From NCBI GenBank assembly GCA_016786665.1, contig JAEUVZ010000058.1:1-64000 (forward strand): a stretch of DNA of 64,000 nucleotides. The letters run 5' to 3'. Positions 22,625-42,131 of this stretch are shown here, piece by piece. The notes beneath the pieces are model-generated. The model was not told where the DNA came from. It saw nothing but the letters and a program-made list of their open reading frames with translations, and ran no database searches. Source of the stretch: Flavipsychrobacter sp. Lineage in GTDB: Bacteria; Bacteroidota; Bacteroidia; Chitinophagales; Chitinophagaceae. Both the position numbers and the translations under genes were made by a program. Positions within the stretch are counted from its first letter, which is position 1; each line of letters opens with the position of its first letter.

Positions 22625-22633
22625 TACTTTAAG

Positions 22634-22664
22634 AAACTCCTGTTAAATCGGGAGTTTTTTTTTA
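22634..22664 (+). terminator. Rho-independent terminator after the acyl-CoA dehydrogenase
   Basis: A 7-bp stem AAACTCC / GGAGTTT (22634-22640, 22651-22657), a 10-nt loop and a T-run ending about 22664. Confidence 0.85.
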
Positions 22665-22674
22665 TTTTGGATGT

Positions 22675-23286
22675 ATGCCCTCATACCGCACCACCAGGCC
22701 CAGATACTCCACCATGGAACAGGTATCTAACGTGGAGTACCGATTCAACCGTGACGATACGTATTTCCGGTATGTTGCAGGTTTGGGAGTAGCCATCTAT
22801 CTACTATTTGCATTGCCCATAGCTTTTCTGACGAAAGGTGGATACGATTTGGTCTTCAAGAGAGAACAGTTTGGCGGTACGTATGTTTTTGTAAATTCAG
22901 AAACCGGCTTTGTGAATGTATCTCCCAAAGTTTTTGATTGGAAATCTCTGGTGGTCATCATTCTTCTTCATATATTCTGGTACTATATTTTCATACGCGA
23001 GTATCGGGGCACATTCAAAAAAAAATTGACTATCACGGACAACTTTATAAAGAGCGGACGGAGGCAATTCGAACGAAGCAAAGTGGCATTCATCTCTATA
23101 ACACCAGGCATCACAAGCAAATACGGCCGCGCACAGACATACCGCGTGAACCTGAAAATGAAAGGTTGGATATTTACTAACAAATGCCTTTCCCCAATAG
23201 AGAAGAAAGAGGATGCGCTAAGAATAGCCCAGGAAATTGCTACCATCCTGGGGTTGCAAGTTTGGGACGAAACAGGCCGCTCCTGA
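22675..23286 (+). CDS. two-helix membrane protein, unknown function
   Basis: A 203-residue protein that I do not recognise. Two membrane helices are visible (about 34-55, FRYVAGLGVAIYLLFALPIAF, and about 88-108, LVVIILLHIFWYYIF) with a loop of about 30 residues between them. The C-terminal half (about 110-203) is cytosolic and basic, with a beta-rich PH-like pattern (KLTITDNFIKSG, FISITPG, YRVNLKMKGW) ending in a helix; it may be a bacterial PH-type domain, but that is only resemblance. An alternative ATG lies at 22714 (MEQVSNVEY). It begins 10 bp after a terminator and the sequence is slightly AT-richer than its neighbours. Confidence 0.75.
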   Translation: MPSYRTTRPRYSTMEQVSNVEYRFNRDDTYFRYVAGLGVAIYLLFALPIAFLTKGGYDLVFKREQFGGTYVFVNSETGFVNVSPKVFDWKSLVVIILLHIFWYYIFIREYRGTFKKKLTITDNFIKSGRRQFERSKVAFISITPGITSKYGRAQTYRVNLKMKGWIFTNKCLSPIEKKEDALRIAQEIATILGLQVWDETGRS

Positions 23287-23312
23287 TAACGCAGTATGAG
23301 CATATTCACCTT

Positions 23313-24758
23313 CTAAAACTTGCCTCCCGGCAATACCAATACCTTGTAGCCATTGCCCTGCAGGCTGTCGATAGTTGACGGCGCGGGAACAATGGGGTAC
23401 ACCGTGGCATCCAGGTAGAACATGGCCTCTATATAGTGCTCGGCGTTAAAAATGATACAGTTGGCGCTATCCCACTCCCCGCACCTTAGTTTCTTTATTT
23501 CCCTGCTCCAGTCATCCTCGCGGCTGGCAATGGGTATCGGCTTTATACGCTCCAGGGTGTACTTTACCGAGAAGAGCACAATGGCCAACGCTGCCAATCG
23601 CAGGGCGGGCCGGTAGCTGCCCGTGTCGGCACGTGTGAGCAGCCAGTCTACGGCACAAGCCATCATCAGCACCACGGCCGGGGACGCAATTAATGTATAG
23701 GCGGGCATCTTGGTAGCTACCACGGTAAAAAACGCATAAGGTATGCCCCACCATACCAGGCACAGCAGGTGACCGTTGCTGCGCTGCCGGGCGGTCTGCA
23801 CGGCAAAGATGATCAGCGCGGGGTACACCAGGTAACCATATATGGTACCCATCCAGCCGAAATGAAACCAGGCCGAACCCTCATGCTCTTCCAATGCTTC
23901 GTAAAGGTGAAGGTTGTTGTAAGCATATTCCCATTTTGCCTCCACGGGATACGAATGCAGTATGTGCCACTGCCAGGGAAGGAAAACCGCGGTTGCTACC
24001 ACCAGCACCAGCAATACCCGCAGCAGGGCGGCAACGTATCGCCCCTTGAGGCTGCCGCGCTGCGATAGCACCAGCCACAGCGGCAGCACGATAAAAGCGG
24101 TAAGCCACTTGGTGAGCACGGCGAGGCCCAGGGCTATACCTGTAAGCAGCAACAGGTAAAACCGCTCCTTCCGGAAATAGCTGACCGATAACCACACCGC
24201 CAGCAATATAAAGAACTGGAACAGCGCATCGGGGTGGTCGGTATGCACCCTGCCGGCGGCAATGGCGATAACGTAACCGTTGATGGCGAACAGCAGCGCG
24301 GCTATATAGGCTACACGCGAGGAGAACAGGTACCGCCCTACATCAAACACCAGCCATATGGCCAGGGTAGACAGCAGTATGGATGGCAGGCGCACTGCAA
24401 AAGCGCTCATCCCAAATACCTTTAAGCTGAGCGCTATCAGCCAGAGCGTTACGGGCTGTTTATGTACCCATACGTGATTGGCCTGCCAGTCGGTAGGGTC
24501 ATAGGGCAATACAGGATGCTCATAAAGGGTGGGCTTGAGCCAATGCCCCGGCATATTGCCGGCCACCAGCGCATGATAGCGCTCATCCCACGCATGTAGC
24601 TGCGGATCGGCGGCTACAAACACGCGCAGGCTGAGGCCTGCCAGCATTACCAAGCCTATTGCCACCGCATATCGTTCCTGCTGCGCGGCTTTCCACGACA
24701 GGTATAAGCCCGCGGTACTGAGCAGGATAAGGATGATAGCGCTTACCAGGTGCTGCAT
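23313..24758 (-). CDS. GT39/ArnT-type membrane glycosyltransferase
   Basis: A 481-residue multi-spanning protein (about 11-12 hydrophobic segments) of the dolichyl/undecaprenyl-phosphate sugar transferase type. The first periplasmic loop has the family's acidic motif WDERYHALVAGNM (Asp58-Glu59), then a PLLP/ALP-like PVLPYD, and VHTDHPDALFQFFIL later; these are typical catalytic and substrate sites. A C-terminal soluble domain begins around 400 and ends at GGKF. Such enzymes move a sugar from a lipid-phosphate donor to lipid A, a protein or a polysaccharide; the acceptor here is unknown. It lies 15 bp after the hydrolase gene on the same strand. Confidence 0.9.
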   Translation of the reverse strand: MQHLVSAIILILLSTAGLYLSWKAAQQERYAVAIGLVMLAGLSLRVFVAADPQLHAWDERYHALVAGNMPGHWLKPTLYEHPVLPYDPTDWQANHVWVHKQPVTLWLIALSLKVFGMSAFAVRLPSILLSTLAIWLVFDVGRYLFSSRVAYIAALLFAINGYVIAIAAGRVHTDHPDALFQFFILLAVWLSVSYFRKERFYLLLLTGIALGLAVLTKWLTAFIVLPLWLVLSQRGSLKGRYVAALLRVLLVLVVATAVFLPWQWHILHSYPVEAKWEYAYNNLHLYEALEEHEGSAWFHFGWMGTIYGYLVYPALIIFAVQTARQRSNGHLLCLVWWGIPYAFFTVVATKMPAYTLIASPAVVLMMACAVDWLLTRADTGSYRPALRLAALAIVLFSVKYTLERIKPIPIASREDDWSREIKKLRCGEWDSANCIIFNAEHYIEAMFYLDATVYPIVPAPSTIDSLQGNGYKVLVLPGGKF

Positions 24759-24773
24759 GGGCGCAAGATACTA

Positions 24774-26153
24774 CTATCCTCCATTCCTCGGCAGGAACCA
24801 GGTTACGTTGTTCTCCTGCCTCATAGGGAGCGGCTCGCGGTTGAGTATAATTTCCATAAGGGTAGTGGTGAACGGATAAAAAAACGAAAGCTCCTCCTTC
24901 TCAAACATGGGCGCCACATTCATACTGAAGGTGGGCAGCGCGTTGTTAATGTTGTCTTCATTGGCATTGGCCACGTCATAGTATCCTATCAGTTCAGTGC
25001 CCGAGGACGCGGTAAACTCCAGCCGAAGGGTTGATAACTCCTCGCTGCGGATGTCATCTACATTCACATGAAAGCAACGGAAGCTGTTATCGGCGGCATA
25101 GGTATGCACGTCAAAGGGTATCTGCTGCCATTGGCTGGCATCGTTGGGGTCTTTACCTTTCAGTACGCGGTATAGCTGCAGGTTGTAGTCTATTATTCCA
25201 TCTCCCCGCTCATCCACCGCCCGCACTACGAACTGCTGGTATTTCTCCATGTTCTTCAGCGTCCTTTCTGAGCGGGCAACGGCCTTGTCTATCCAGTTGT
25301 CGTATGCCGCCAGGCTTGTTACCTGCAGTGCTTCGGTCACATAGTCCACCAGTTCATCGGATGGGTCCTCCAGTATCGTGGCGTGGTTCAATCCTTTCAC
25401 GGGTATAAAGGGCATCCTCAGGTTGCTGCGGTGGTCTTGCGGCCACGAGGTGATGCGAATGCGGTCTTGCCCGCTCACTTCATCATCGGGCAGGGTAAAG
25501 TCAAGGGTTATTTTGCGCACATTCAGCGCGCATCCTGTCCAGCGCACCGTGCCATCGGTACCATCCGACCGGGTAACCAATCCTTTCAGTCCCTTATAGG
25601 GGGTATCGCCGCAGAAGGTAAATACGTAAGGGGTATCAGCCCCCGGTCCATAATATATTTTCTCACCCAGAAGGTCTTTATGGGCCAGGTCCCAGGTGAA
25701 ACGGCTGCCCAGCTCCAGCCCATCTAGCACCAGGTTGCCCGCCTCCATAAAGTCAGGCCCACGCTCCCTGCTGCCTTTAAAAATAGAACCTATCCAGCTG
25801 CGCCCCTTGTGCGCCAGCGGTGAGCCGAACGAGGCCGGCGCTATGGCTATCAAGTGCTTCAGCCGCTCATGCCGCCCATAAACCGACAACCACGACCGCA
25901 ATACCAGCATACCGGTAGAGTGTACCATGGCATCAAAAGGCTGCTGCGGGTCTATGTTGAATTTCAGGCGCAGCGCGCGGTCAAAGCCCTCCGCTATGTC
26001 TTTTATGGTCACTTCATTAGTGAGCGACTTGTAGCTGCATATGTGTATGTCCTCGGCTTTGTAGATACCCTTTTTCGCGAGTATCTCCTTCCAGCGCTGA
26101 AAGCTCTCACCCTTGTCGGAGTAGCCGTGTATAAGTACCATCGGTATGGCCAT
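24774..26153 (-). CDS. alpha/beta hydrolase (lipase/esterase-like)
   Basis: A 459-residue protein with the start MAIPMVLIHGYSDKG at 26153 (an earlier ATG at 26264 gives a poorly supported extension). The N-terminal half has the fold's features: strand MVLIHGYSD with an oxyanion HG, and the nucleophile elbow MVHSTGMLV, where Ser79 sits in H-S-x-G. A candidate His is in GLNHATI. The C-terminal third (about 320-459) is a separate beta-rich domain (WQQIPFDVHTYAADN, RCFHVNVDD), probably for binding. Substrate is unknown. It is followed 15 bp downstream by the GT39 gene. Confidence 0.85.
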   Translation of the reverse strand: MAIPMVLIHGYSDKGESFQRWKEILAKKGIYKAEDIHICSYKSLTNEVTIKDIAEGFDRALRLKFNIDPQQPFDAMVHSTGMLVLRSWLSVYGRHERLKHLIAIAPASFGSPLAHKGRSWIGSIFKGSRERGPDFMEAGNLVLDGLELGSRFTWDLAHKDLLGEKIYYGPGADTPYVFTFCGDTPYKGLKGLVTRSDGTDGTVRWTGCALNVRKITLDFTLPDDEVSGQDRIRITSWPQDHRSNLRMPFIPVKGLNHATILEDPSDELVDYVTEALQVTSLAAYDNWIDKAVARSERTLKNMEKYQQFVVRAVDERGDGIIDYNLQLYRVLKGKDPNDASQWQQIPFDVHTYAADNSFRCFHVNVDDIRSEELSTLRLEFTASSGTELIGYYDVANANEDNINNALPTFSMNVAPMFEKEELSFFYPFTTTLMEIILNREPLPMRQENNVTWFLPRNGG

Positions 26154-26230
26154 ATTGTTTCGTTTTAATAATGATGAAGAAATTTGAGTTGAGTAAATTA
26201 ATATTAATCTCTTGCATATTCTACTGTTAA

Positions 26231-26262
26231 TAAAAAAGCCGCTCACCTTCCGGTGAGCGGCC
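26231..26262 (-). terminator. Rho-independent terminator of the Tudor-like gene
   Basis: A perfect 10-bp stem GCCGCTCACC / GGTGAGCGGC (26238-26247, 26252-26261) with a 4-nt loop. On the minus strand it is followed by TTTTTTATT. It lies 22 bp past the stop at 26284. Confidence 0.93.
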
Positions 26263-26283
26263 ACACAATGGTTTGTGCCTATG

Positions 26284-26673
26284 CTATAGTTTTTTCATCT
26301 GCTTCTCGGTTACCCACTTAGTGCCGTACACCGATTTCTCATACTCTATCTTGTACTTGTTCTCTCCCACTTCTATCACCTTTGCCGGTTCGGGTATCAT
26401 ACCGTATTCCACTTCCACTTTGTCCCCCACTTTAAATTTGGTTAGCGGTGCCTGCGTAGCATAGCCGCGTATCTTGTCTTTTGTTACCCATTCGTTCCAG
26501 CTATCGCTCCAGTCGTCGTAGCTCACAAAGTATTTGTCGCCATCTACTTTCTCTATCTTACCCTTATACCACGAGCCTTCGTGGTCTATCTCTATCTTAT
26601 CACCCACTTTTTGCGCCTGCGCCGCAAACGTGCCGATGCACAACATCATTACCAGGAAGAAAAGTTTTTTCAT
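26284..26673 (-). CDS. secreted protein with two Tudor/chromo-like domains
   Basis: A 129-residue protein. The start MKKLFFLVMM at 26673 gives a clear signal peptide ending AAQAQ; the longer frame at 26700 would mask it. Two repeats follow: KVGDKIEIDHEGSWYKGKIEKVDGDKYFVSYDDWSDSWNEWVTKDKI (about 22-68) and KVGDKVEVEYGMIPEPAKVIEVGENKYKIEYE (about 79-112). The W-Y-x-G-K and Y-x-Y-x-x-W pattern is that of Tudor-knot/agenet-type barrels. A secreted form is unusual for a fold best known from nucleic-acid and chromatin proteins. The ligand is unknown. It has its own terminator and is probably monocistronic. Confidence 0.8.
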   Translation of the reverse strand: MKKLFFLVMMLCIGTFAAQAQKVGDKIEIDHEGSWYKGKIEKVDGDKYFVSYDDWSDSWNEWVTKDKIRGYATQAPLTKFKVGDKVEVEYGMIPEPAKVIEVGENKYKIEYEKSVYGTKWVTEKQMKKL

Positions 26674-26759
26674 CTTTTTGTGTTTTAAAGCGTTAAACAT
26701 TAATTATTAAATGACCGTTTGTTTAGTGACTATGGATGAGTACAGGCAATTTAGGGGCC

Positions 26760-26789
26760 AAAAAAATGCCGCCCAAAAGGACGGCATTA
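26760..26789 (-). terminator. Rho-independent terminator of the metzincin gene
   Basis: A stem AATGCCGCCC / GGACGGCATT with one G-T pair (26765-26774, 26779-26788). On the minus strand it is followed by T6. It starts about 20 bp past the stop at 26808. Confidence 0.85.
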
Positions 26790-26807
26790 AAATTTAATTA
26801 AAAATAT

Positions 26808-29336
26808 CTATCCTTTCGGCTCCAGCGCCTGCTTTATGCGCTCGCTGATATCCTGAAGGTGGTATTTGCTCATTTTATCGGTAGTGCCGGGTATGGCGGC
26901 GTTCACCTGGGCCCGCAGGCTGCTCAGTTGCCCCCTCGCCACCGACATTACATCGGTATTCTTATACACCGTATTGGCCGTCTGCACGCTGCCGCGGCCC
27001 ACGCTCATGGTCGACTTGCCCTCGGGGTCTACCAGGTTGATGAGCGCTTCGGTATATGCCTTCTGCAGGTTACGGCGGTAGGCGTCTATGGGCTTCCGGC
27101 TGGTGAGTTCGCTCCATATGCCCTTGCGCACATCGCTTATCATATCGTCCATAGAGTACGTTCCGGCACCAAAACGGTTACTGCTTACCGACAGGCGGTG
27201 CAGGCGCTGCGCGGAAAACAGGCTGTTCAGCACATTTACCTGCAGGTTGCTCACCGACTCGAACCCTACAGGGTTGCTTATCTTGTTCAGTATCTGCCCG
27301 TCCAGCAACCAAACCGGTGTTTCAAACAGCTGCTTGTTCAGGAAGGCTACAGCTTCCTGCTGTATCGCTTTCGGGGTAGGTTCGTACACGTCTCCCTGCT
27401 GCTCTATGCTTTTGGGTGTTTCGTACACACCACCTACATTCTTCAGCACGTGGTTCATGTAGCGATTAAACTGGCCCACCAGCGCTCCGTACATGGTAGA
27501 GAGGTTCTCATACTTGTCCGCATCTTCTTTGGTCCACTCGGGCAGGTTCACCAGTATGCGCTTCAGGTTCTTAATACCATATTCGCTGGCCTTCATGCTG
27601 TTATCGCCCAGGTCTTCGGTTTGTGAGCGCGGGTCGAAGGGGTTGGTCTCCGTACCGAACCATAGCCTGGGGTTAGCCGATAGATTATCGATGATCCACT
27701 TGTTCACTATCTTTTTATCCGCTTCCGCGTCGCGGGCGTCGGTCAGGGTATAGCCCCACTTTATCGCCCACAGGTCGTACTCCCCTATGCGCGGAAACAA
27801 ACCTACCTGTGCTATGTTATCTTCCGGCTGCGCCACATAGTTGAAGCGGGCGTAGTCCATTATAGAGGCGGTGTGGCCATTGGCTTCTACCCACGCTTTG
27901 TTGCGCAGGTTCTCTACCGGCGTGCGGCTGCTGCTGCCCATGTTGTGGCGCAGGCCCAGGGTATGCCCTACCTCGTGGCTGGAGACGAAGCGGATGAGCT
28001 GGCCCATCAGTTCGTCGTCAAATTTCATCTTGCGCGCGCGCGGGTCTACCGCTGCCGCCTGTATCATATACCAGTCGTGCACCAGCTTCATCACGTTGTG
28101 GTACCAGCCTATGTGGCTCTCCATTATTTCTCCGCTCCGCGGGTCGTGTACGTTGGGGCCATATGCGTTGGGGATATCCGAAGGGAGGTAGCGCACTACC
28201 GAGAAGCGCGCGTCTTCCAGGTTCATGGTGCTGTCTTCCGGCCACTCCTTCCCTACTATCGCATTCTTAAAGCCCGCTTTCTCAAAAGCCACCTGCCAGT
28301 CGTCTATACCCTGTATCAGGTACTTGCGCCAGCGCTTGGGCGTTGCGGGGTCTATATAGTACACTATGGGCTTCTTAGGCTCTACCAGTTCGCCGCGCTT
28401 CCACCTGGCCACGTCCTCGTCTTTAGGCTCCAGCCTCCAGCGCACGATGAACACTTCATTTTCCGCCTTCTGCTGGTCGTCGGCATACACCGTGTAGTCA
28501 TCCGCAAAATAACCCACGCGTGGGTCAAACAGGCGCTTCTTCATCGGCACCTTTGGCAGTAGTATAAAGGAGTTGTTCATCTCCAGCGTTACCGTACCGG
28601 CGGTATAGGCCGCAGGCAGCGTAGTGCTGGGGAACTGCCCGGGAGAAACCGGCATAAAGCTGGGTACCGAGCTGTAAGTGCGCACCGTGCGCACTTCGGT
28701 ATTGATGGGATACGAGTGAATATGCGCTATATACGATTTGTCGGCCTGGATGCCGCCCAGGTTAAAACGCTTTTTGGTGTAAGGGCTCAGGCTTACCGGG
28801 GCGTTGTCCCCTTTAAAGTAGTCAGTAACATCTATTACCACGGCGCCGCTGTCTTTGCCCATCGCCTTTATTTCAAACGCCCCGGCTATCGGGTTCAGGT
28901 TAGAGTTGCTCACCGCCTTGTAGATGTCGGTGGTGGAGTCGGCCATGCTGATGGTGGTGACCACGCGCAGAAATACATTCTTATTCGGCCCTTTCTCAAA
29001 CATGATGGTCTGCTGGTTTTCCAGCTCTCCGGCATATACGCCGCCGCCGCCGGCCGTCTTGCTGTATCGGGTGGTCATGATCATTTCCCGGCCCATCAGG
29101 CTGTCGGCTATTTCAAAATACCACTTATCCTCCACCTGGTGAACGATAAACAAACCATTTCGGGTAATAGCTTTATCGGTGATCACCTTTTTATACGGTT
29201 GAGGGCCTTTCTTGCTGGCCGCGGAACTATCCGCCTTGGGAGCCGCAGCCGCTACCGGCTTGTTCTTATCCTTCTTCTTAGCCGTTGCCCCCAATACCGG
29301 CAACAGCAGCAATGCTGCAATGAGCGCTTTCTTCAT
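26808..29336 (-). CDS. zinc-dependent metzincin-type metalloprotease (DUF5117/DUF5118 type)
   Basis: An 842-residue secreted protein. Residues 1-20 are a signal peptide (MKKALIAALLLLPVLGATAK), then a Lys/Ala/Pro linker. The zinc site HEVGHTLGLRH (454-464) fits HExxHxxGxxH, with a following Met-turn-like region. The N-terminal 250 residues resemble a DUF5118/DUF5117 pair that precedes the protease in this Bacteroidota family (YSKTAGGGGVYAG, FEIKAMG). The C-terminal part (about 560-842) is a helical domain. These enzymes are periplasmic or surface endopeptidases of unknown physiological targets. It is monocistronic. Confidence 0.92.
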   Translation of the reverse strand: MKKALIAALLLLPVLGATAKKKDKNKPVAAAAPKADSSAASKKGPQPYKKVITDKAITRNGLFIVHQVEDKWYFEIADSLMGREMIMTTRYSKTAGGGGVYAGELENQQTIMFEKGPNKNVFLRVVTTISMADSTTDIYKAVSNSNLNPIAGAFEIKAMGKDSGAVVIDVTDYFKGDNAPVSLSPYTKKRFNLGGIQADKSYIAHIHSYPINTEVRTVRTYSSVPSFMPVSPGQFPSTTLPAAYTAGTVTLEMNNSFILLPKVPMKKRLFDPRVGYFADDYTVYADDQQKAENEVFIVRWRLEPKDEDVARWKRGELVEPKKPIVYYIDPATPKRWRKYLIQGIDDWQVAFEKAGFKNAIVGKEWPEDSTMNLEDARFSVVRYLPSDIPNAYGPNVHDPRSGEIMESHIGWYHNVMKLVHDWYMIQAAAVDPRARKMKFDDELMGQLIRFVSSHEVGHTLGLRHNMGSSSRTPVENLRNKAWVEANGHTASIMDYARFNYVAQPEDNIAQVGLFPRIGEYDLWAIKWGYTLTDARDAEADKKIVNKWIIDNLSANPRLWFGTETNPFDPRSQTEDLGDNSMKASEYGIKNLKRILVNLPEWTKEDADKYENLSTMYGALVGQFNRYMNHVLKNVGGVYETPKSIEQQGDVYEPTPKAIQQEAVAFLNKQLFETPVWLLDGQILNKISNPVGFESVSNLQVNVLNSLFSAQRLHRLSVSSNRFGAGTYSMDDMISDVRKGIWSELTSRKPIDAYRRNLQKAYTEALINLVDPEGKSTMSVGRGSVQTANTVYKNTDVMSVARGQLSSLRAQVNAAIPGTTDKMSKYHLQDISERIKQALEPKG

Positions 29337-29456
29337 ACTTGTGCGTGTAATAAACCGCTAATATATTGAATTAGAGGCAGGAATGGACAGACTACCGGGT
29401 AAAATACCGTTGGATGGGGGAGGGGTGATTATTATTAAGTTATCCACTTTAATACA

Positions 29457-31904
29457 CTATTTAGATTGCCAATAATTCTTCATCTGTTCTTTTATTAACA
29501 AATATTCAGCCTCATCAATACCGTAATTAGTAATGTATTTCATATCTATGTCGAACCTCTTCTCAAAATCTTCAAATCTATCAAAGCCTAAAACACACTC
29601 CTTGTAAAAATCGATTGCCCTGTCTGTATTTCCCGAGCACAACTCAAAATGTCCCAAATTGCCTAGCAAAATTTTACTTTTTTGAATTGAATATGCTTTA
29701 TACATATATTTACCGGCCAACTCTAAATCAATTTTGCAAACAAGGTACATTCGTCCAACATTCATCAATGTCAGAAGATTATTCTTTTCAATACCTAGTG
29801 CTAATTCAGAATACTTTAATGCCTGACTATTATCTTCTAAGTCCGTATATGCAGAAATCAACAAATTGTAGATACGAGAAAGCAATTTCTTTTCTTGCTT
29901 AGCTAATGCCCTCAGCCCATAGTTTGCTGCTTGTTGGTAATCCTCTTTCGCCATGTAAGCCCATCCTTTTCTGACTAAGAATTCTGGATCATTTGGATAT
30001 AAACTTAGACCGTAATCCAAAATATTAACCTCATCATCGTTTCGATCAAGATTGTCGTAACAGAGACTCAAGTTGAGAATTATCTCTCTATTTGATGGAG
30101 AAATTTCTTTTGCCAGTAATAATACTCCTAAAGCGTCATCATACATTTCCAAATTCGCATAACAAAGTCCCATTAAACGAAATGCATTAAAGCTTAATTC
30201 ATCTTCTTTAATCTTACGAAGGTACTGAAGTGCCAATTTATAGTCTGGATTGGAAAGATTGGCATGAGATTCAGCTATCAGAATTAATGCTTCCATATTC
30301 TGAGGCTCTATCTGTAATAGCTCATTCAAACGAACTATTGCATTAGCATAATCCTCATTATTGACTAAATTCTCGGCAGTTAAAAACAATTCATTTATTC
30401 TACTCAGAATAAGAGACTTAACTTTCGTTTGCACGATAGTTGTACGAGTCTTGAAAACATCCTGAATTTTATTTTTTGAATAGTGTGTTAGAAAATTATA
30501 GTATTCTGCAGTGAGATTTTGATAAGGTGCAAACGCCGATGAAATTGATAACTGGCGATTCATAGTGTCAATAAACTGTTTTAAGGCCTCATTTCTCTTA
30601 AGGTCTACATCTTTGACTTCCTTAACATTACCTTCAGGTAGAGACAAACACAAGAAATACTTGAAAGAGTCTAGAAATGGTAATTTTGTAATAGCTGCCT
30701 TAAAATGCTCACCATCAATATTTTCAGGACAATTGTCTAGTGACTCTTCTAGTACGGAGTTATCCTCGTAAAAGGGCAGGAAACAGTTTGCTGGCGAGTC
30801 AAAAAAGCTATTACTATAAATAGAATCAGCTGATATTGTCTCTTTGAACAATCCATGTACTAAAATTAACTCCATAACTTTCAATCCTTCTTGAACATCA
30901 TCTAGATTTTTGAGCGTTTCTAACCTCTTTTTCAAATTATCAAATCGCCCAATTTTATTGTGATGTTTTATCAAAGCAAGAACGAGGCTAACTAACGCAC
31001 ATTGCCACACCCTATCTTCAAAATCGGTCAAAAAATCTATCAGAACACTTATCTTTTGAGGGGCAAATTTTCTGTCACTCAACAGAGATAAGGTTATCGC
31101 ATTCACAATAATTTTTCGGTCATACCAGGAAAAATCCCTCTGATTACCTCGAACCTTGAGAATCTCTTGATAAGTCAAATCGTCTAACACCTCCAGCGAT
31201 ATAATACTTTCAAATAACGACTTAGCTACTTTATTCTTAAGCGCTGACACATTCAGTATTTTATCATCAAGCACTCCAACTAGTTTGTTGTACAGTGCCC
31301 TTTTAAGTTCCTGAACGGTATCAAAATCTCCCTGTGAACTATTATAGTTAAGTGCAGTTGCTTCCTGCGAAAAAAGTGCTACTAAACTTTCAAGAGATTC
31401 ATTCAAGTCACTATCATTGTCTACAAGTACCTTCTCGACGCTACTTTTTTTCGTAGAAATAGCTAATATTACCTTCTTAAGACTTTGGGTAATATCATTA
31501 AAAGCAGCATCTTGATCTGACCATTTGGTAATAGGCAAAGCACTTTTGGGCAAGCACTCCATATTTTTAAAAGGAAGTTTCTCATGTTGCCAATCACACT
31601 CTCGTAATATTATCGGAATTACTACTGCCTTTCCCTCGCTATACAGTTCAATGGCTTTTGCAACTTCTACATCAACGCAATAATTTGAAGCTAAAAAATC
31701 ACGGCTTAACAACAACAGAATTATATCAGATTCTTGCAACTCCACCATAATATTTTCATCAATATCACCACCAGGGATTATCTTTCGAAAGTACCACTCA
31801 TGCAGCCCATCATGCCTCTTAAGTATAGCTAAAGACTTTTCCAATTCTTCTCGGAAAGACTCATCTTTCTCAGCATATGAATAAAACAACTTAATAGTTT
31901 TCAT
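29457..31904 (-). CDS. TIR-domain protein with C-terminal TPR array
   Basis: An 815-residue protein. Residues 1-150 are a TIR domain: box 1 LFYSYAEKDESF, then GDIDENIMVELQESDIILLLLSRDFLASNYC with Ser67-Arg68-Asp69 and Cys76. Glu80 (in CVDVEVAKA) is in the place of the catalytic Glu of NAD-cleaving TIR enzymes. Residues about 150-510 are helical with no family recognised. Residues about 515-790 hold about seven TPR repeats (RLMGLCYANLEMYDDAL, ILNLSLCYDNLDR, KGWAYMAKEDYQQA). There is no signal or membrane segment, so it is cytosolic. The gene is far AT-richer than its neighbours: two hand-counted 60-base lines are 27% and 33% GC, against 63% for a line just past its upstream end. It lies 55 bp after the FAD gene. 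An immune or NAD-depleting role is inference from the domains. Confidence 0.9.
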   Translation of the reverse strand: MKTIKLFYSYAEKDESFREELEKSLAILKRHDGLHEWYFRKIIPGGDIDENIMVELQESDIILLLLSRDFLASNYCVDVEVAKAIELYSEGKAVVIPIILRECDWQHEKLPFKNMECLPKSALPITKWSDQDAAFNDITQSLKKVILAISTKKSSVEKVLVDNDSDLNESLESLVALFSQEATALNYNSSQGDFDTVQELKRALYNKLVGVLDDKILNVSALKNKVAKSLFESIISLEVLDDLTYQEILKVRGNQRDFSWYDRKIIVNAITLSLLSDRKFAPQKISVLIDFLTDFEDRVWQCALVSLVLALIKHHNKIGRFDNLKKRLETLKNLDDVQEGLKVMELILVHGLFKETISADSIYSNSFFDSPANCFLPFYEDNSVLEESLDNCPENIDGEHFKAAITKLPFLDSFKYFLCLSLPEGNVKEVKDVDLKRNEALKQFIDTMNRQLSISSAFAPYQNLTAEYYNFLTHYSKNKIQDVFKTRTTIVQTKVKSLILSRINELFLTAENLVNNEDYANAIVRLNELLQIEPQNMEALILIAESHANLSNPDYKLALQYLRKIKEDELSFNAFRLMGLCYANLEMYDDALGVLLLAKEISPSNREIILNLSLCYDNLDRNDDEVNILDYGLSLYPNDPEFLVRKGWAYMAKEDYQQAANYGLRALAKQEKKLLSRIYNLLISAYTDLEDNSQALKYSELALGIEKNNLLTLMNVGRMYLVCKIDLELAGKYMYKAYSIQKSKILLGNLGHFELCSGNTDRAIDFYKECVLGFDRFEDFEKRFDIDMKYITNYGIDEAEYLLIKEQMKNYWQSK

Positions 31905-31959
31905 CAGTAGGCAGCTATTTTACTTAAAAATACAGTTTGAAAGCTTATATAGCAAGTCC

Positions 31960-33102
31960 TTATAACACCTCCCCATGCGTCAGCCCTATCAGTTTCCGCT
32001 CCAGCGGGGGTATGGCGTGTACCGTGTTCAGGAACAGGCTCGTGAGTGCCGGGTTGCCGAAGAAGCGCTGAATGGTGCGGCCCCAGTAGAGGCGGGTTTT
32101 GAATTGTTTGCTCCAGAGGCGGAGGTAGGCGGCTTCCAGTTGCGCGCGCTCGCGCGGGGGTATGGTGGTGTGGCGCAGTATGTCGCTTTCTTTTATCAGG
32201 TCTGTTAACAGCTTCGCCGCACCTATGGCCATGCTCATGCCGTTGCCGCAGAGCGGGGTGATGAGTCCGGCGGCATCGCCGCACATGAGGATGTGGTTAT
32301 CTACTACCGTCTTGGGCGCAAACGATATTTGCGTAATGGCCAGCGGCGCCTCCCACAAAAAATTCGCTCGCCTGAAAATATCTTTCAGCACCGGGTTTTT
32401 AAAGAGCACTTTTTCTTCCAGCTCGGGTATGCTGCTGTGCTGCTCCTTTGGCGCGCGGTAGCTGAGGTAGCAAAGGTTGTATCTATTCCCTTCCACCCGG
32501 GAGATACCACAATAGCCATCCCGGAAGTTGTCCAGCCCTATCTCATCTTCCGGGTAGTCTATTTCTATATGGTACTTTACACCGGTGTAGCCGGTATGTT
32601 GCTGTATAAAGTCGCGATGGAGTTTCTTATCCAGGGTATCGCGCTTGCCATAGCTGCCGATAACGAGTTTGCCGCTATAAGTATCGCTGCTGGTAGTAAC
32701 CGTAAACTGCTCACCGCTGAACGCAATATCGCTCACCCGGGTATTGGTGCGCACCTCCGCCCCCAGGGCGAGCGCCCGCTGATACAATTCATTATCTATT
32801 GTATAGCGGCTGATGCCAAAGCCCCCCATATCAAGCGCGGTACGGATGTTCTTTCCCATGGGCGTAGAGATGCGCAGGCGTTTAATAGCCGCCGCGCCAT
32901 GGGCAAAGGGGTCAAACCCCAGCGAGCGCAGGTAGGGCAGCACCTCGTTGCTGATATACTCGCCGCAGACCTTATGATAGGGATACTGTTTCTTTTCTAT
33001 CAGCAGTGTTTTGTATCCGGCACGGGCTAGTTCAATGGTAGCGGTAAGGCCCGCCAGGCCGCCGCCAATCACTATCACATCATATGTTGCGTTCGCGCTC
33101 AT
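31960..33102 (-). CDS. FAD-dependent oxidoreductase of the geranylgeranyl-reductase/monooxygenase type
   Basis: A 380-residue protein. The ATG at 33102 (MSANATYDVIVIGGG) overlaps the preceding stop as ATGA, so the two genes are probably translationally coupled. The FAD-binding Rossmann motif is GGGLAG (13-18), the second FAD motif is MCGDAAGLITPLCGNGMSMA (about 285-305). The N-terminal HKVCGEYISNEV segment is typical of the geranylgeranyl-reductase-like oxidoreductases. A ring hydroxylase or reductase acting on the type III PKS product is the likely job; SrsC, an FAD hydroxylase in the srsABC phenolic-lipid set of Streptomyces griseus, is the nearest functional analogy known to me. Confidence 0.9.
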   Translation of the reverse strand: MSANATYDVIVIGGGLAGLTATIELARAGYKTLLIEKKQYPYHKVCGEYISNEVLPYLRSLGFDPFAHGAAAIKRLRISTPMGKNIRTALDMGGFGISRYTIDNELYQRALALGAEVRTNTRVSDIAFSGEQFTVTTSSDTYSGKLVIGSYGKRDTLDKKLHRDFIQQHTGYTGVKYHIEIDYPEDEIGLDNFRDGYCGISRVEGNRYNLCYLSYRAPKEQHSSIPELEEKVLFKNPVLKDIFRRANFLWEAPLAITQISFAPKTVVDNHILMCGDAAGLITPLCGNGMSMAIGAAKLLTDLIKESDILRHTTIPPRERAQLEAAYLRLWSKQFKTRLYWGRTIQRFFGNPALTSLFLNTVHAIPPLERKLIGLTHGEVL

Positions 33103-33797
33103 TTGTAGATGATGAGTTGCCAGCGCCAGGCCCAGCGCCACTTGAGTGAATAATGACTGATGCCCGCCGCCGCCAGCGTTTCCTCCCAGTCCCGGCGGGT
33201 AAAAGCGCGCGCTACCGAGAGCCGTGCATCGTAGCGCACCAGGCGGGCTTTGGCAAACAAGTACGTAAGTACCGCAATGGCATAGTAGGCGAACCAATGC
33301 CGGTGCAGGTCGTTTATGATAACGGCGCGTTGGGCCAATGTGTGCATCCGCTTCAAAATACCAACCAGCGCCTCTTTCTCAAAGTGGTGGCAAAAGAGGC
33401 TGGCGGTGGTGATGTCGGCACGCTCGCTCATCAGCGCGTCATCAAATACGTTGAGCGCTTTATAGGTAATGTCTGTATACCCCGCCGAGCGCTCTTCGGC
33501 AAACTCTATTATGTCGGGGTTCAGGTCTATGCCGGTGAGCTGCACTTTCTTGTGGCGTCTCTTCGCCCATTCCGATATTTTCCGGAGCATATCTCCGCCG
33601 CCGCAACCTACATCCAGTATGGTGAGCGGTTCTTCTTTTATATCCAGTTTGTCAAGCGCCTCCGTTACTACCCCGTATCCCCCCAGGCGGATGTTGATGG
33701 CTTCTATCTCGCGCAGCGCTATGCGGATGTCCTCGCGCGGTATATCCGGCTCGTCCATTATTTCCAAAAGGGTGCTGCGTTGGGAGAAATCCGGCAT
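33099..33797 (-). CDS. class I SAM-dependent methyltransferase
   Basis: A 232-residue methyltransferase. SAM-binding motif I is TILDVGCGGGDML (59-71), the acidic motif is LTGIDLNPDIIEFA, and the later segment ALNVFDDALMSERADITTASLFCHHFE matches motif post-I/II. It lies 10 bp after the type III PKS gene and overlaps the FAD gene by 4 bp. This order (PKS, methyltransferase, FAD enzyme) is the same as srsA-srsB-srsC, where the methyltransferase acts on the alkylresorcinol product. The substrate here is not known. Confidence 0.93.
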   Translation of the reverse strand: MPDFSQRSTLLEIMDEPDIPREDIRIALREIEAINIRLGGYGVVTEALDKLDIKEEPLTILDVGCGGGDMLRKISEWAKRRHKKVQLTGIDLNPDIIEFAEERSAGYTDITYKALNVFDDALMSERADITTASLFCHHFEKEALVGILKRMHTLAQRAVIINDLHRHWFAYYAIAVLTYLFAKARLVRYDARLSVARAFTRRDWEETLAAAGISHYSLKWRWAWRWQLIIYK

Positions 33798-33807
33798 GAG
33801 CAGTGGT

Positions 33808-34926
33808 TTACATCACTTCCAATATCATAGACTCCATCGTAATGCCGGGGCCGAAGGCACAGGATAATATTTTCTTTCCTTTATCGGCAGCCGACCATTG
33901 CTCCAGGTAGCGCCGCAGCACGAACATGACTGTCACAGAGCTCATGTTACCGTAGTCGCGCAGTATGGAGTACGATACACCATTCTGCTCCCGGCTGATG
34001 TTCAGCGACTCCTGGCAGGCTTCCAGTATTTTCACCCCGCCTGGGTGTATGGCGTAGTAGTCTATTTCTTCTTGTTCCAGTTGTGCTTTGCGCAGCAGGC
34101 TATCTACCAGGGCGCGCATATTTCCTTTTACCACGTTGGGCACTTCGGGCGTCAGGCGCAGGTCAAAGCCATAATCACCTATACGCCACACCATGTCGTT
34201 GGAGGCATTGGGCTCAAATTCCGAGTAGAAGTGGCGCAGGCCCAGGGTGCTGTGCGTTTCCCCGCTGTTAATATTTTTCGCCGATATCACCGCCGCGGCA
34301 GCCCCATCACTAAAGATGGCATTGGCCACCACCTGGAAGGGGTCGCTGCTTCTGCGGTAGTGCAGCGAGCAGAGTTCCACACCGGCTATCAGTACCACGG
34401 CGCTCTCGTCGGCTTTGGATATGTAGTAGGCCGACTTCAACGCATTAATAGCGGCATAGCAGCCCATAAAGTTGATACAGGTGCGTTCCACATGACGCTC
34501 CAGGCCCAGGCTTTCCACCAGCTGTATATCCAGGCCGGGGGCGTGCATGCCCGTGCAGCTAAAGGTGATGAGATGGGTAATGTCTTTCCGGTCCAGCGTG
34601 GGCAGTTGCGCCAGGCAATCGCGCGCGGCTTCGTCGCAGAGGGCGGGCGCGTATTCCTCGTATATATTCATCCGCAGCGAAACGGCCACATCCGGGTAGT
34701 CTCCCGAAGGGTGAAAAAGCCGGTTCTCCGCACTGTCCTCACGCTCAAATTCACTCAGCACACTGTGGCGGTATTTAATGCCGCTTCTGCCATATATCGT
34801 TTTCAGTACCAGCCGCTCCTCGCGGCTGATGCCATTGGCCGCTTCTATCACAGAAGCGTGCTGCTCCTGCGATATCCTGTTCGGCGGCACCGCTGTTCCT
34901 ATCGCTTGTATTCCGGGGTAAATCAT
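33808..34926 (-). CDS. type III polyketide synthase
   Basis: A 372-residue chalcone-synthase-like enzyme. The catalytic triad is visible as Cys156 in INFMGCYAAI, His294 in YYAIHPGGVK and Asn327 in RDYGNMSS, with a final GFGPG-like segment AFGPGITMESMIL. Type III PKS enzymes are homodimers that condense malonyl-CoA onto a starter acyl-CoA to give resorcinols, pyrones or chalcones. The product cannot be read from sequence. It heads the PKS-methyltransferase-FAD series, and the UbiA gene starts 45 bp away in the opposite direction. Confidence 0.95.
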   Translation of the reverse strand: MIYPGIQAIGTAVPPNRISQEQHASVIEAANGISREERLVLKTIYGRSGIKYRHSVLSEFEREDSAENRLFHPSGDYPDVAVSLRMNIYEEYAPALCDEAARDCLAQLPTLDRKDITHLITFSCTGMHAPGLDIQLVESLGLERHVERTCINFMGCYAAINALKSAYYISKADESAVVLIAGVELCSLHYRRSSDPFQVVANAIFSDGAAAAVISAKNINSGETHSTLGLRHFYSEFEPNASNDMVWRIGDYGFDLRLTPEVPNVVKGNMRALVDSLLRKAQLEQEEIDYYAIHPGGVKILEACQESLNISREQNGVSYSILRDYGNMSSVTVMFVLRRYLEQWSAADKGKKILSCAFGPGITMESMILEVM

Positions 34927-34971
34927 TCTTGCCTTAAATTACTCTATATTTAGGATATAAATATCGTACTC

Positions 34972-35892
34972 TTGAGCGCAGGAACACTAAATCTTTTCAA
35001 CATCTTCGACCGCGACACCCGGATTCACCTGCGCATACCTTTTTCTTACTATTTATTACCCGTATATGTTTTCGGCCTAAGCCAGGCCAGTCCTATATAC
35101 GTAGTAGATACGCTCATTGTTTTCGTAGCGCTGCATTTATTCATATATCCCGGCAGCAATATCTACAATAGCTATATGGATAACGATACCGGCAGCATAG
35201 GCGGCATCAAGAATCCACCGCCGGTTACCCCCAGGCTGTATTATGCCAGCATTATTTTCGACCTCGTTGGCCTGGCGCTCTGCCTGCTGGCCGGCTGGCA
35301 GACACTGCTGCTCATGCTGGGCTATGTCGGCTTTTCCAAAGGCTATAGCTGGCACGGCATCCGCTTCAAGAAATATACTTATGGTGGCTGGCTCTCCGTG
35401 GCCTTCTTCCAGGGGGGCTACACCTTCCTGCTCTCCAATATGTCGGCAGAGGGGCTGTTTTCTACGGGGTGGTTCACACCCCGCAACCTGGAGTGTATGG
35501 CCATAGCCTCCATCCTCATAGGGGGCTCCTACCCGCTCACCCAGGTGTACCAGCATAAGCAGGACAGCGAAAGCGGCGACATGACCATCAGCCGGAAGCT
35601 GGGGGTAAAGGGCACGTTCATCTTTTCGGGGCTTTCGTTCTTTACAGGGGCTATGCTACTGCTGCACTATTTCTATACCTTCTATACGCTGAACCAGTTC
35701 TACGTATTCGCCGCCTGCCTGTCGCCGGTCATTATTTATTTCAACTGGTGGTTTATTCAGTCAATGAAGAATGCGGAACAGGTAAACTACGAAAATACCA
35801 TGATGATAAACCGCATATCTGCCACCTGCATGATTCTGTGCTTCAGCATCATACTGTACCTCAATTACGCGCAGGCGGGCCTTATTTGGTAG
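34972..35892 (+). CDS. UbiA-family prenyltransferase-like membrane protein
   Basis: A 306-residue membrane protein with about eight or nine hydrophobic segments. The first Asp motif is altered: NIYNSYMDNDTGSIGG has Asn66, Asp70 and Asp72 where UbiA family members usually show NDxxDxxxD. The second motif QDSESGDMTISRKLG (Asp198, Asp203) is typical. Family members attach an isoprenoid chain to aromatic rings at the membrane. The start is a TTG at 34972; an in-frame TAG at 34951 excludes longer forms and no ATG is near. It is divergent from the PKS gene with a 45-bp gap and overlaps the convergent dehydrogenase by 11 bp. Confidence 0.88.
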   Translation: MSAGTLNLFNIFDRDTRIHLRIPFSYYLLPVYVFGLSQASPIYVVDTLIVFVALHLFIYPGSNIYNSYMDNDTGSIGGIKNPPPVTPRLYYASIIFDLVGLALCLLAGWQTLLLMLGYVGFSKGYSWHGIRFKKYTYGGWLSVAFFQGGYTFLLSNMSAEGLFSTGWFTPRNLECMAIASILIGGSYPLTQVYQHKQDSESGDMTISRKLGVKGTFIFSGLSFFTGAMLLLHYFYTFYTLNQFYVFAACLSPVIIYFNWWFIQSMKNAEQVNYENTMMINRISATCMILCFSIILYLNYAQAGLIW

Positions 35893-41265: not shown

Positions 41266-42072
41266 CTATTCGGTATCCTTTCCTTCCATTACATCGAGCA
41301 GCACCTGCTGCGACCTGGTGAGCAAACCTGCCATGAAATCATAGAAGAGATCAGGGTCTCCTCCATAGCCTTGCACATCAGCAAGAAACTGGTAGTACAT
41401 TCTGCGCTCCTCTTCTTTTATATAAATGGGCGGATACCCGTAAGAGATCAAAATCAGGTTGGTAAGTATACGGCACGTCCTTCCATTCCCATCATAAAAG
41501 GGGTGGATAACAATAAAGTCAAGATGAGCTTGCAATGCCAGGGAAACCGGGTGCAGTGCGTCAATAGCACCCTCTTTTATTTTGTCCGCTTCGGCGTTCA
41601 GCCAATTTATCAGCCGATGCATGCGTTCAGGTACCTCAGCGTGGTTCACAAAATCAAAACGCTCCCCTTTATAATTAGTCAGGTAGTTGTTGCTCGTTTT
41701 CCATTTACCTATTAGCTGTGCCTTCTCACGGTTTTCTTCGTGCATTATCCCCTTATGTAACTCCCGTATCCGCCGCTCACTAATGCGCACGTGCGATCTT
41801 CCTATTTTCAGTATTTCAGTAATCACCTCATCATGTCCTTTCATCTCCAGGATGTCACCTATTGGCTTCCCATCCACCGTTATATTACCTACCATCACAC
41901 TGCGTGTCTCCGAACGGGTAAGCGAATTCCCCTCCATGCTATTAGAAGTGTAGTTCCACTCCAGCCGGAACTTGTAGTTGATTTTCTTCAACACTTCATC
42001 AGGCAGCTTGCCATGTTTTTCAATAGCCTGCTGCATGTCGTCTATCTGCCTTAATTTATCTAAATACGACAT
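41266..42072 (-). CDS. Fic-family protein with N-terminal inhibitory motif
   Basis: A 268-residue Fic protein. The start MSYLDKLRQIDDM at 42072 is chosen over an upstream one at 42099. The catalytic motif HPFYDGNGRTCR (190-201) matches HxFx(D/E)GNGRxxR. The inhibitory motif (S/T)xxxE(G/N) is present before it as SNSMEG (Ser43, Glu47), which marks a self-inhibited (class II type) Fic enzyme. Such enzymes transfer AMP to a hydroxyl side chain on a target protein; the target is not known. There is no FicA-like antitoxin gene next to it. Its base composition is slightly AT-richer than the flanking genes. Confidence 0.92.
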   Translation of the reverse strand: MSYLDKLRQIDDMQQAIEKHGKLPDEVLKKINYKFRLEWNYTSNSMEGNSLTRSETRSVMVGNITVDGKPIGDILEMKGHDEVITEILKIGRSHVRISERRIRELHKGIMHEENREKAQLIGKWKTSNNYLTNYKGERFDFVNHAEVPERMHRLINWLNAEADKIKEGAIDALHPVSLALQAHLDFIVIHPFYDGNGRTCRILTNLILISYGYPPIYIKEEERRMYYQFLADVQGYGGDPDLFYDFMAGLLTRSQQVLLDVMEGKDTE

Positions 42073-42096
42073 ACTTACCTTTCTATTATAAATATA

Positions 42097-42131
42097 CAAA
42101 AGCGCCGCACATATCCAGTGCGGCGCTTTCT
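42097..42131 (-). terminator. Rho-independent terminator after metK
   Basis: An inverted repeat AGCGCCGCAC / GTGCGGCGCT (42101-42110, 42118-42127) with a 7-nt loop. On the minus strand it is followed by TTTTGTA. It lies 16 bp beyond the metK stop. Confidence 0.85.

What the first reader, a model, noticed from the sequence alone, without database searches (positions are those of the whole stretch)
29457..31904. AT-rich TIR-TPR gene with the catalytic Glu in place
Seen: an N-terminal TIR domain (1-150) with Glu80 at the NADase position, an uncharacterised helical middle (150-510) and a TPR array (515-790) in one cytosolic 815-residue chain. The gene is far AT-richer than its neighbours (16/60 and 20/60 GC in two counted lines, against 38/60 just beyond it). 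Known: many bacterial TIR proteins cleave NAD+ or make cyclic ADP-ribose signals in anti-phage defence. Inference: a horizontally acquired single-gene defence or signalling protein whose TPR and middle domains sense a trigger. No ThsA, STING, Argonaute or cyclase gene is adjacent, so it does not match the multi-gene systems I know.
Basis: partly seen in the sequence, partly recalled or inferred. Interest (0 to 1): 0.72.

Follow-up and report, generated by a model that had tools for sequence, protein, structure and literature searches.

The report
TIR enzyme fused to swappable sensor
A rare gene acquired from elsewhere in a Chitinophagaceae bacterium joins a TIR domain (a domain that often destroys the cell's NAD+ to stop viruses) to a sensor-like module which, in a relative, carries an immune adaptor tag in place of the TIR; this points to a one-gene anti-virus system and to a possible link with a conserved Bacteroidales protein of unknown role.

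Summary
In detail: an 815-aa ORF (29457-31904, minus) with TIR, helical middle and TPR array, GC 0.35 and GC3 0.32 against about 0.51-0.56 and 0.42-0.72 in neighbouring genes. It is accessory: a congener keeps both flanks but has an unrelated gene in the slot, and the middle module occurs in 2 of 299 genomes of the family. The best relative, in Hymenobacter (another order), is again AT-rich in a GC-rich genome.

The "uncharacterised middle" plus TPR is not unique: Bacteroidales carry it as a ~740-aa protein without TIR (56 of 61 genomes of one family). Its N-terminal domain there aligns with effector-associated domain 11 (EAD11). In a relative from the same order the same middle carries EAD11 instead of TIR, in a genome with 27 EAD11 places, including TIR-EAD11, caspase-EAD11 and CHAT-EAD11 proteins. 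A third TIR-fused relative lies within 6 kb of a bSEFIR defence gene. So this looks like a TIR effector fused to an EAD11-type conflict-system core.

Caveat: Glu80 matches catalytic Glu74 of Cat1, but the essential Asp (Cat1 D33) is Phe39 here, so NADase activity is plausible, not assured. No phage trigger is known.

The parts
29457..31904 (-). Whole gene: 815-aa TIR - middle module - TPR protein
31455..31904 (-). TIR domain, residues 1-150
   Evidence: Pfam TIR_2, PADLOC ThsB-type TIR, Cat1 match; predicted alternating strands and helices, moderate confidence
31665..31667 (-). Glu80, aligned with Glu74 of Cat1
   Evidence: alignment, role of E74 in PMC12162218; Glu in 27 of 30 aligned TIR sequences
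31788..31790 (-). Phe39, at the position of the essential Asp33 of Cat1
   Evidence: Asp in 23 of 30 and Cys in 5 of 30 aligned TIR sequences, Phe only here; D33A defective in Cat1
31320..31454 (-). Linker, residues 151-195, low model confidence
30405..31319 (-). Middle helical module, residues 196-500; homologous to Bacteroidales ~740-aa proteins and to the EAD11-tagged G939 protein
30759..30785 (-). FLPF motif (residues 374-382, CFLPFYEDN), among the most conserved stretches of the middle module
   Evidence: alignments
29589..30392 (-). TPR array, about residues 505-772
29460..29588 (-). C-terminal cap, residues 773-815, helices also seen in relatives
29389..31966 (.). Exchanged slot: DNA similarity to congener G043 stops at 29388 and resumes at 31967

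Best explanation
This is a horizontally acquired, single-gene conflict (most likely anti-phage) protein. The middle module plus TPR array is a sensor or adaptor core. In its relatives without TIR the N-terminus carries an EAD11-type domain, which in G939 would recruit separate EAD11-tagged effectors (TIR, caspase, CHAT); in this clade a TIR effector is fused directly instead. Proposed sequence: a phage or stress trigger binds the fast-diverging TPR/middle superhelix (inferred); the protein multimerises (inferred); paired TIR domains form an active site around Glu80 and consume NAD+ or make an ADP-ribose signal (inferred from the TIR family); the infected cell stops growing (inferred). Shown here by computation: domain layout, homology of the middle+TPR module, TIR/EAD11 exchange at the same position, accessory and foreign character.
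For: TIR with Glu80 aligned to Cat1 E74. Same middle module with EAD11 in place of TIR in G939 (31% identity to the window's middle), a genome with 27 EAD11 places, among them TIR-EAD11 (L101, L104), caspase-EAD11, CHAT-EAD11 and iSTAND-EAD11. TIR and EAD11 members form one clade, 99% SH-aLRT. The core proteins' N-terminus matches EAD11 profile to profile (probability 88%, P 2.8e-6; reversed and TPR controls 3.6% and 0.4%). The UBA7600 relative lies within 6 kb of a bSEFIR gene (E 3.6e-98) and near another TIR gene. Foreign composition and patchy presence. Identity to the Hymenobacter protein is 43% in the middle, 35% in the TIR and 26% in the TPRs, as expected if TPRs track a changing ligand. 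The EAD principle is described in PMC8195603.
Against: No phage data. The essential Asp is replaced by Phe39 here, and Tyr appears to stand there in the UBA7600 protein (my reading of the alignment), so NADase activity may be weak, altered or lost. No defence gene was recognised next to the gene in the window or in Hymenobacter. Only three TIR-fused members were found. The EAD11 match of the G939 protein is borderline by Pfam (22.8 bits by hmmscan, 26.1 counting frame neighbours, cut-off 26), and that gene, which lacks TPRs, ends 48 bases from a contig end. The 50 best Foldseek matches are helical-repeat proteins only, so the fold search adds nothing on the TIR.
Confidence: 0.55

Rival explanations
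1. The TIR is non-enzymatic or altered: it acts as an assembly scaffold that recruits other TIR proteins, because the active-site Asp is lost.
For: Phe39 where Cat1 and 23 of 30 aligned TIR sequences have Asp; Ile48 where Trp is common.
Against: Glu80, Ser9, Ser67 and Ser73 are kept; the Hymenobacter relative keeps Asp. Five relatives have Cys at the position, so it tolerates change.
Confidence: 0.2
2. A Thoeris-like signal producer: the TIR makes a cyclic ADP-ribose signal for an effector encoded elsewhere in the genome.
For: Closest PADLOC TIR model is ThsB (E 3.5e-44).
Against: No SIR2_2 (ThsA-type) gene in the genome, which is 98.7% complete; no partner recognised nearby. Membrane/macro-type ThsA was not searched.
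Confidence: 0.1
3. A housekeeping or regulatory protein related to the Bacteroidales core TPR protein, with the TIR used only for protein contacts and no role in defence.
For: The TIR-less relatives look like core genes (56 of 61 genomes, one copy each).
Against: In its own family the module is rare (2 of 299), and the gene is foreign in composition and absent from four congeners; a relative sits near a bSEFIR gene.
Confidence: 0.12
4. A decaying cargo gene with no present function.
For: Single isolated foreign gene with an active-site substitution.
Against: 815 codons intact; middle module 43% identical to the Hymenobacter protein.
Confidence: 0.03

Closest known systems
EAD11-based conflict systems (EAD principle: PMC7159879, PMC8195603)
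   Same: A core module coupled to its effector either by an EAD or by direct fusion; TIR, caspase and CHAT effectors carry EAD11 in G939.
   Different: The window protein carries the TIR itself, and no EAD11 was found in its genome. The middle module matches no Pfam family.
SpbK (single-protein TIR NADase defence, PMC12847820)
   Same: One-gene TIR protein with effector and sensor in one chain.
   Different: Sensor homology was not tested; no known trigger here; Asp position changed here.
DSR2 (SIR2 with a long C-terminal sensor; PMC11087589 and others)
   Same: NAD-consuming N-terminal domain followed by a long helical part (own knowledge for the DSR2 layout).
   Different: SIR2 rather than TIR; homology of the helical parts was not tested.
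Avs5 / AVAST type 5 (PMC12931631)
   Same: N-terminal effector followed by a repeat-type sensor (own knowledge).
   Different: Avs5 is a STAND NTPase; no Walker A motif here.
Thoeris ThsB
   Same: Nearest PADLOC model for the TIR domain.
   Different: ThsB works with ThsA; no SIR2_2 gene in this genome.
Cat1 (CRISPR-associated TIR, PMC12162218)
   Same: Best TIR match among solved structures; E74 aligns with Glu80.
   Different: Cat1 senses cA4 through a CARF domain; none matched here.

Membership tests
Bacterial TIR NADases | TIR domain | tested here: met
   PF13676 E 3e-11 above cut-off, PADLOC 3.5e-44
Bacterial TIR NADases | Catalytic Glu | tested here: met
   Glu80 = Cat1 E74
Bacterial TIR NADases | Active-site Asp equivalent to Cat1 D33 (common, not universal among the relatives aligned) | tested here: not met
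   Phe39; Asp in 23 of 30, Cys in 5
Bacterial TIR NADases | NAD+ cleavage | not testable with these tools
   needs enzymology
Thoeris | Adjacent or trans-encoded ThsA | tested here: inconclusive
   no partner recognised nearby, no SIR2_2 in genome; macro-type ThsA not searched
STAND/Avs proteins | P-loop NTPase (Walker A) | tested here: not met
   no G-x4-G-K-[ST] motif; no NTPase Pfam match
EAD11 conflict systems | EAD11 domain in the protein | tested here: not met
   the window protein has TIR in that place; no EAD11 match in G000
EAD11 conflict systems | Core module shared with an EAD11-tagged homologue | tested here: met
   G939 protein; EAD11 borderline by Pfam, P 4.6e-7 by hhalign
Middle+TPR family of Bacteroidales core proteins | Homologous middle module with FLPF motif, TPR array and C-terminal cap | tested here: met
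DSR2-type SIR2 defence | SIR2 domain | tested here: not met
   no SIR2 match
Anti-phage defence system | Protection from phage | not testable with these tools
   needs a phage assay

The most novel reading that the evidence does not exclude
The EAD11-like/middle/TPR protein conserved across Bacteroidales is itself an immune hub, or a target that phages attack, and the TIR-fused version is a built-in sensor derived from it (a bacterial analogue of integrated decoys in plant receptors), so that attack on the module releases TIR activity.
Probability: 0.15. Interest if true: 0.8.

Novelty: new variant of a known kind. Interest (0 to 1): 0.55.

Why it matters
It ties an unnamed helical module to the EAD11 network by a swap at one position (TIR here, EAD11 in G939), which makes a testable prediction: the same core works with a fused or a recruited effector. 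It also gives a first functional lead for a ~740-aa protein present in most genomes of a Bacteroidales family, whose N-terminal domain looks EAD11-like.

Tried and rejected
Close relatives by single-protein scan of genome contigs: none. Relatives in IMG/VR viral contigs: none in three scans. Plasmid collection: the rows listed are TIR-only hits, and no record covers 80% of the query. The one phage-collection hit, MT836672, looks like bacterial chromosome (uvrA-like and prmA-like ORFs) and was used as a TIR-less relative. Direct repeats or other insertion marks at the gene's edges: none convincing. Bacteroidota -7 promoter motif: no match just upstream of the gene, and no enrichment in the window. 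ThsA-type SIR2 in the genome: none. Literature for a named bacterial TIR-TPR family: nothing found in this library. A guess that the Bacteroidales protein is a known P. gingivalis TPR protein was searched but could not be tied to the sequence, and was dropped. Foldseek: the 50 best matches are helical-repeat proteins.

Full report
Observation. The ORF is as described. Pfam and PADLOC confirm a TIR domain at about 5-154 and TPRs at about 506-771; the middle has no family match. The gene has GC 0.35 and GC3 0.32; eight other genes of the window have GC 0.51-0.56 and GC3 0.42-0.72. No Walker A motif, no membrane segment.

Foreign and accessory. In congener G043 both flanking genes are present (84% and 79% identity) but the slot holds an unrelated 792-aa gene on the other strand; DNA similarity stops at 29388 and resumes at 31967. 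The middle module was found in 2 of 299 genomes of the family and in none of the four congeners, and in 2 of 399 of the order. The family is Chitinophagaceae by inference: G064, placed in the window's family, has the same contig (52,196 bases, same ORFs) as the record named Chitinophagaceae bacterium UBA7600. The best full-length relative is in Hymenobacter properus (34% over 1-808), GC 0.36 inside a stretch of GC 0.61. The UBA7600 gene is not AT-rich against its genome (0.46), so the AT-rich signature holds for two of three TIR-fused members.

What the middle is. A profile of the middle alone finds ~740-aa proteins without TIR in Bacteroidales, present in 56 of 61 genomes of one family, one per genome, several near pgk-like genes (gene identified by own reading of the sequence). 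Alignment shows homology through middle, TPRs and C-terminal cap.

EAD11. In G939, same order, the module starts with EAD11 instead of TIR (borderline by Pfam; P 4.6e-7 by hhalign). That genome has 27 EAD11 places, with EAD11 fused to TIR, caspase, CHAT, iSTAND and EAD7 in the proteins looked at. The core proteins' N-terminus also matches a profile of ten G939 EAD11 domains (88%, P 2.8e-6; reversed control 3.6%, TPR control 0.4%). A quick maximum-likelihood tree places TIR- and EAD11-bearing members in one clade, 99% SH-aLRT; the UBA7600 branch is long, so its exact place is unsure. By the EAD principle (PMC8195603) EADs recruit effectors to a core by homotypic contacts; direct fusion is the other way to couple the same parts. 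The UBA7600 relative lies within 6 kb of a bSEFIR gene, with another TIR gene and one further ORF between them.

Active site. Glu80 aligns with Cat1 E74 and is Glu in 27 of 30 aligned TIR sequences. Cat1 D33, also needed, corresponds to Phe39; 23 of 30 have Asp and 5 Cys. The Hymenobacter protein keeps Asp.

Structure. AlphaFold2 with 11 sequences gives mean pLDDT 77.7, pTM 0.57; TIR moderate, much of the middle and the TPRs high, with weak stretches among 154-222 and at 424-454. The 50 Foldseek matches listed are helical-repeat proteins.

Conclusion. Most likely a TIR effector fused to a sensor core of the EAD11 type, acquired horizontally. Shown: layout, homology, swap, accessory status. Inferred: trigger, multimerisation, NAD+ consumption, defence.

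Noticed in passing
window 41266-42099 (-): Fic-domain-like protein, GC 0.45, matches PADLOC PDC-S04 (E 3e-28) and SoFic (E 3e-25).
   Followed up: partly
window about 22632-26808: A second block with no DNA match in the G043 stretch, between conserved segments: PMT-type glycosyltransferase, lipase-like protein, Agenet-domain protein.
   Followed up: no
window 31960-35892: Type III polyketide synthase, methyltransferase, FAD-dependent reductase and UbiA genes; same order in G043 and G249.
   Followed up: no
L032 (MT836672.1): Record labelled Bacteriophage sp. from human faeces looks like Bacteroidales chromosome (uvrA-like, prmA-like ORFs; own reading).
   Followed up: partly
G939 genome (L101-L112): 27 EAD11 places, including TIR, caspase, CHAT and iSTAND fusions.
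   Followed up: partly
L047:34-5087: UBA7600 cluster: bSEFIR gene, another TIR-like protein and a 476-aa protein with no PADLOC match.
   Followed up: no
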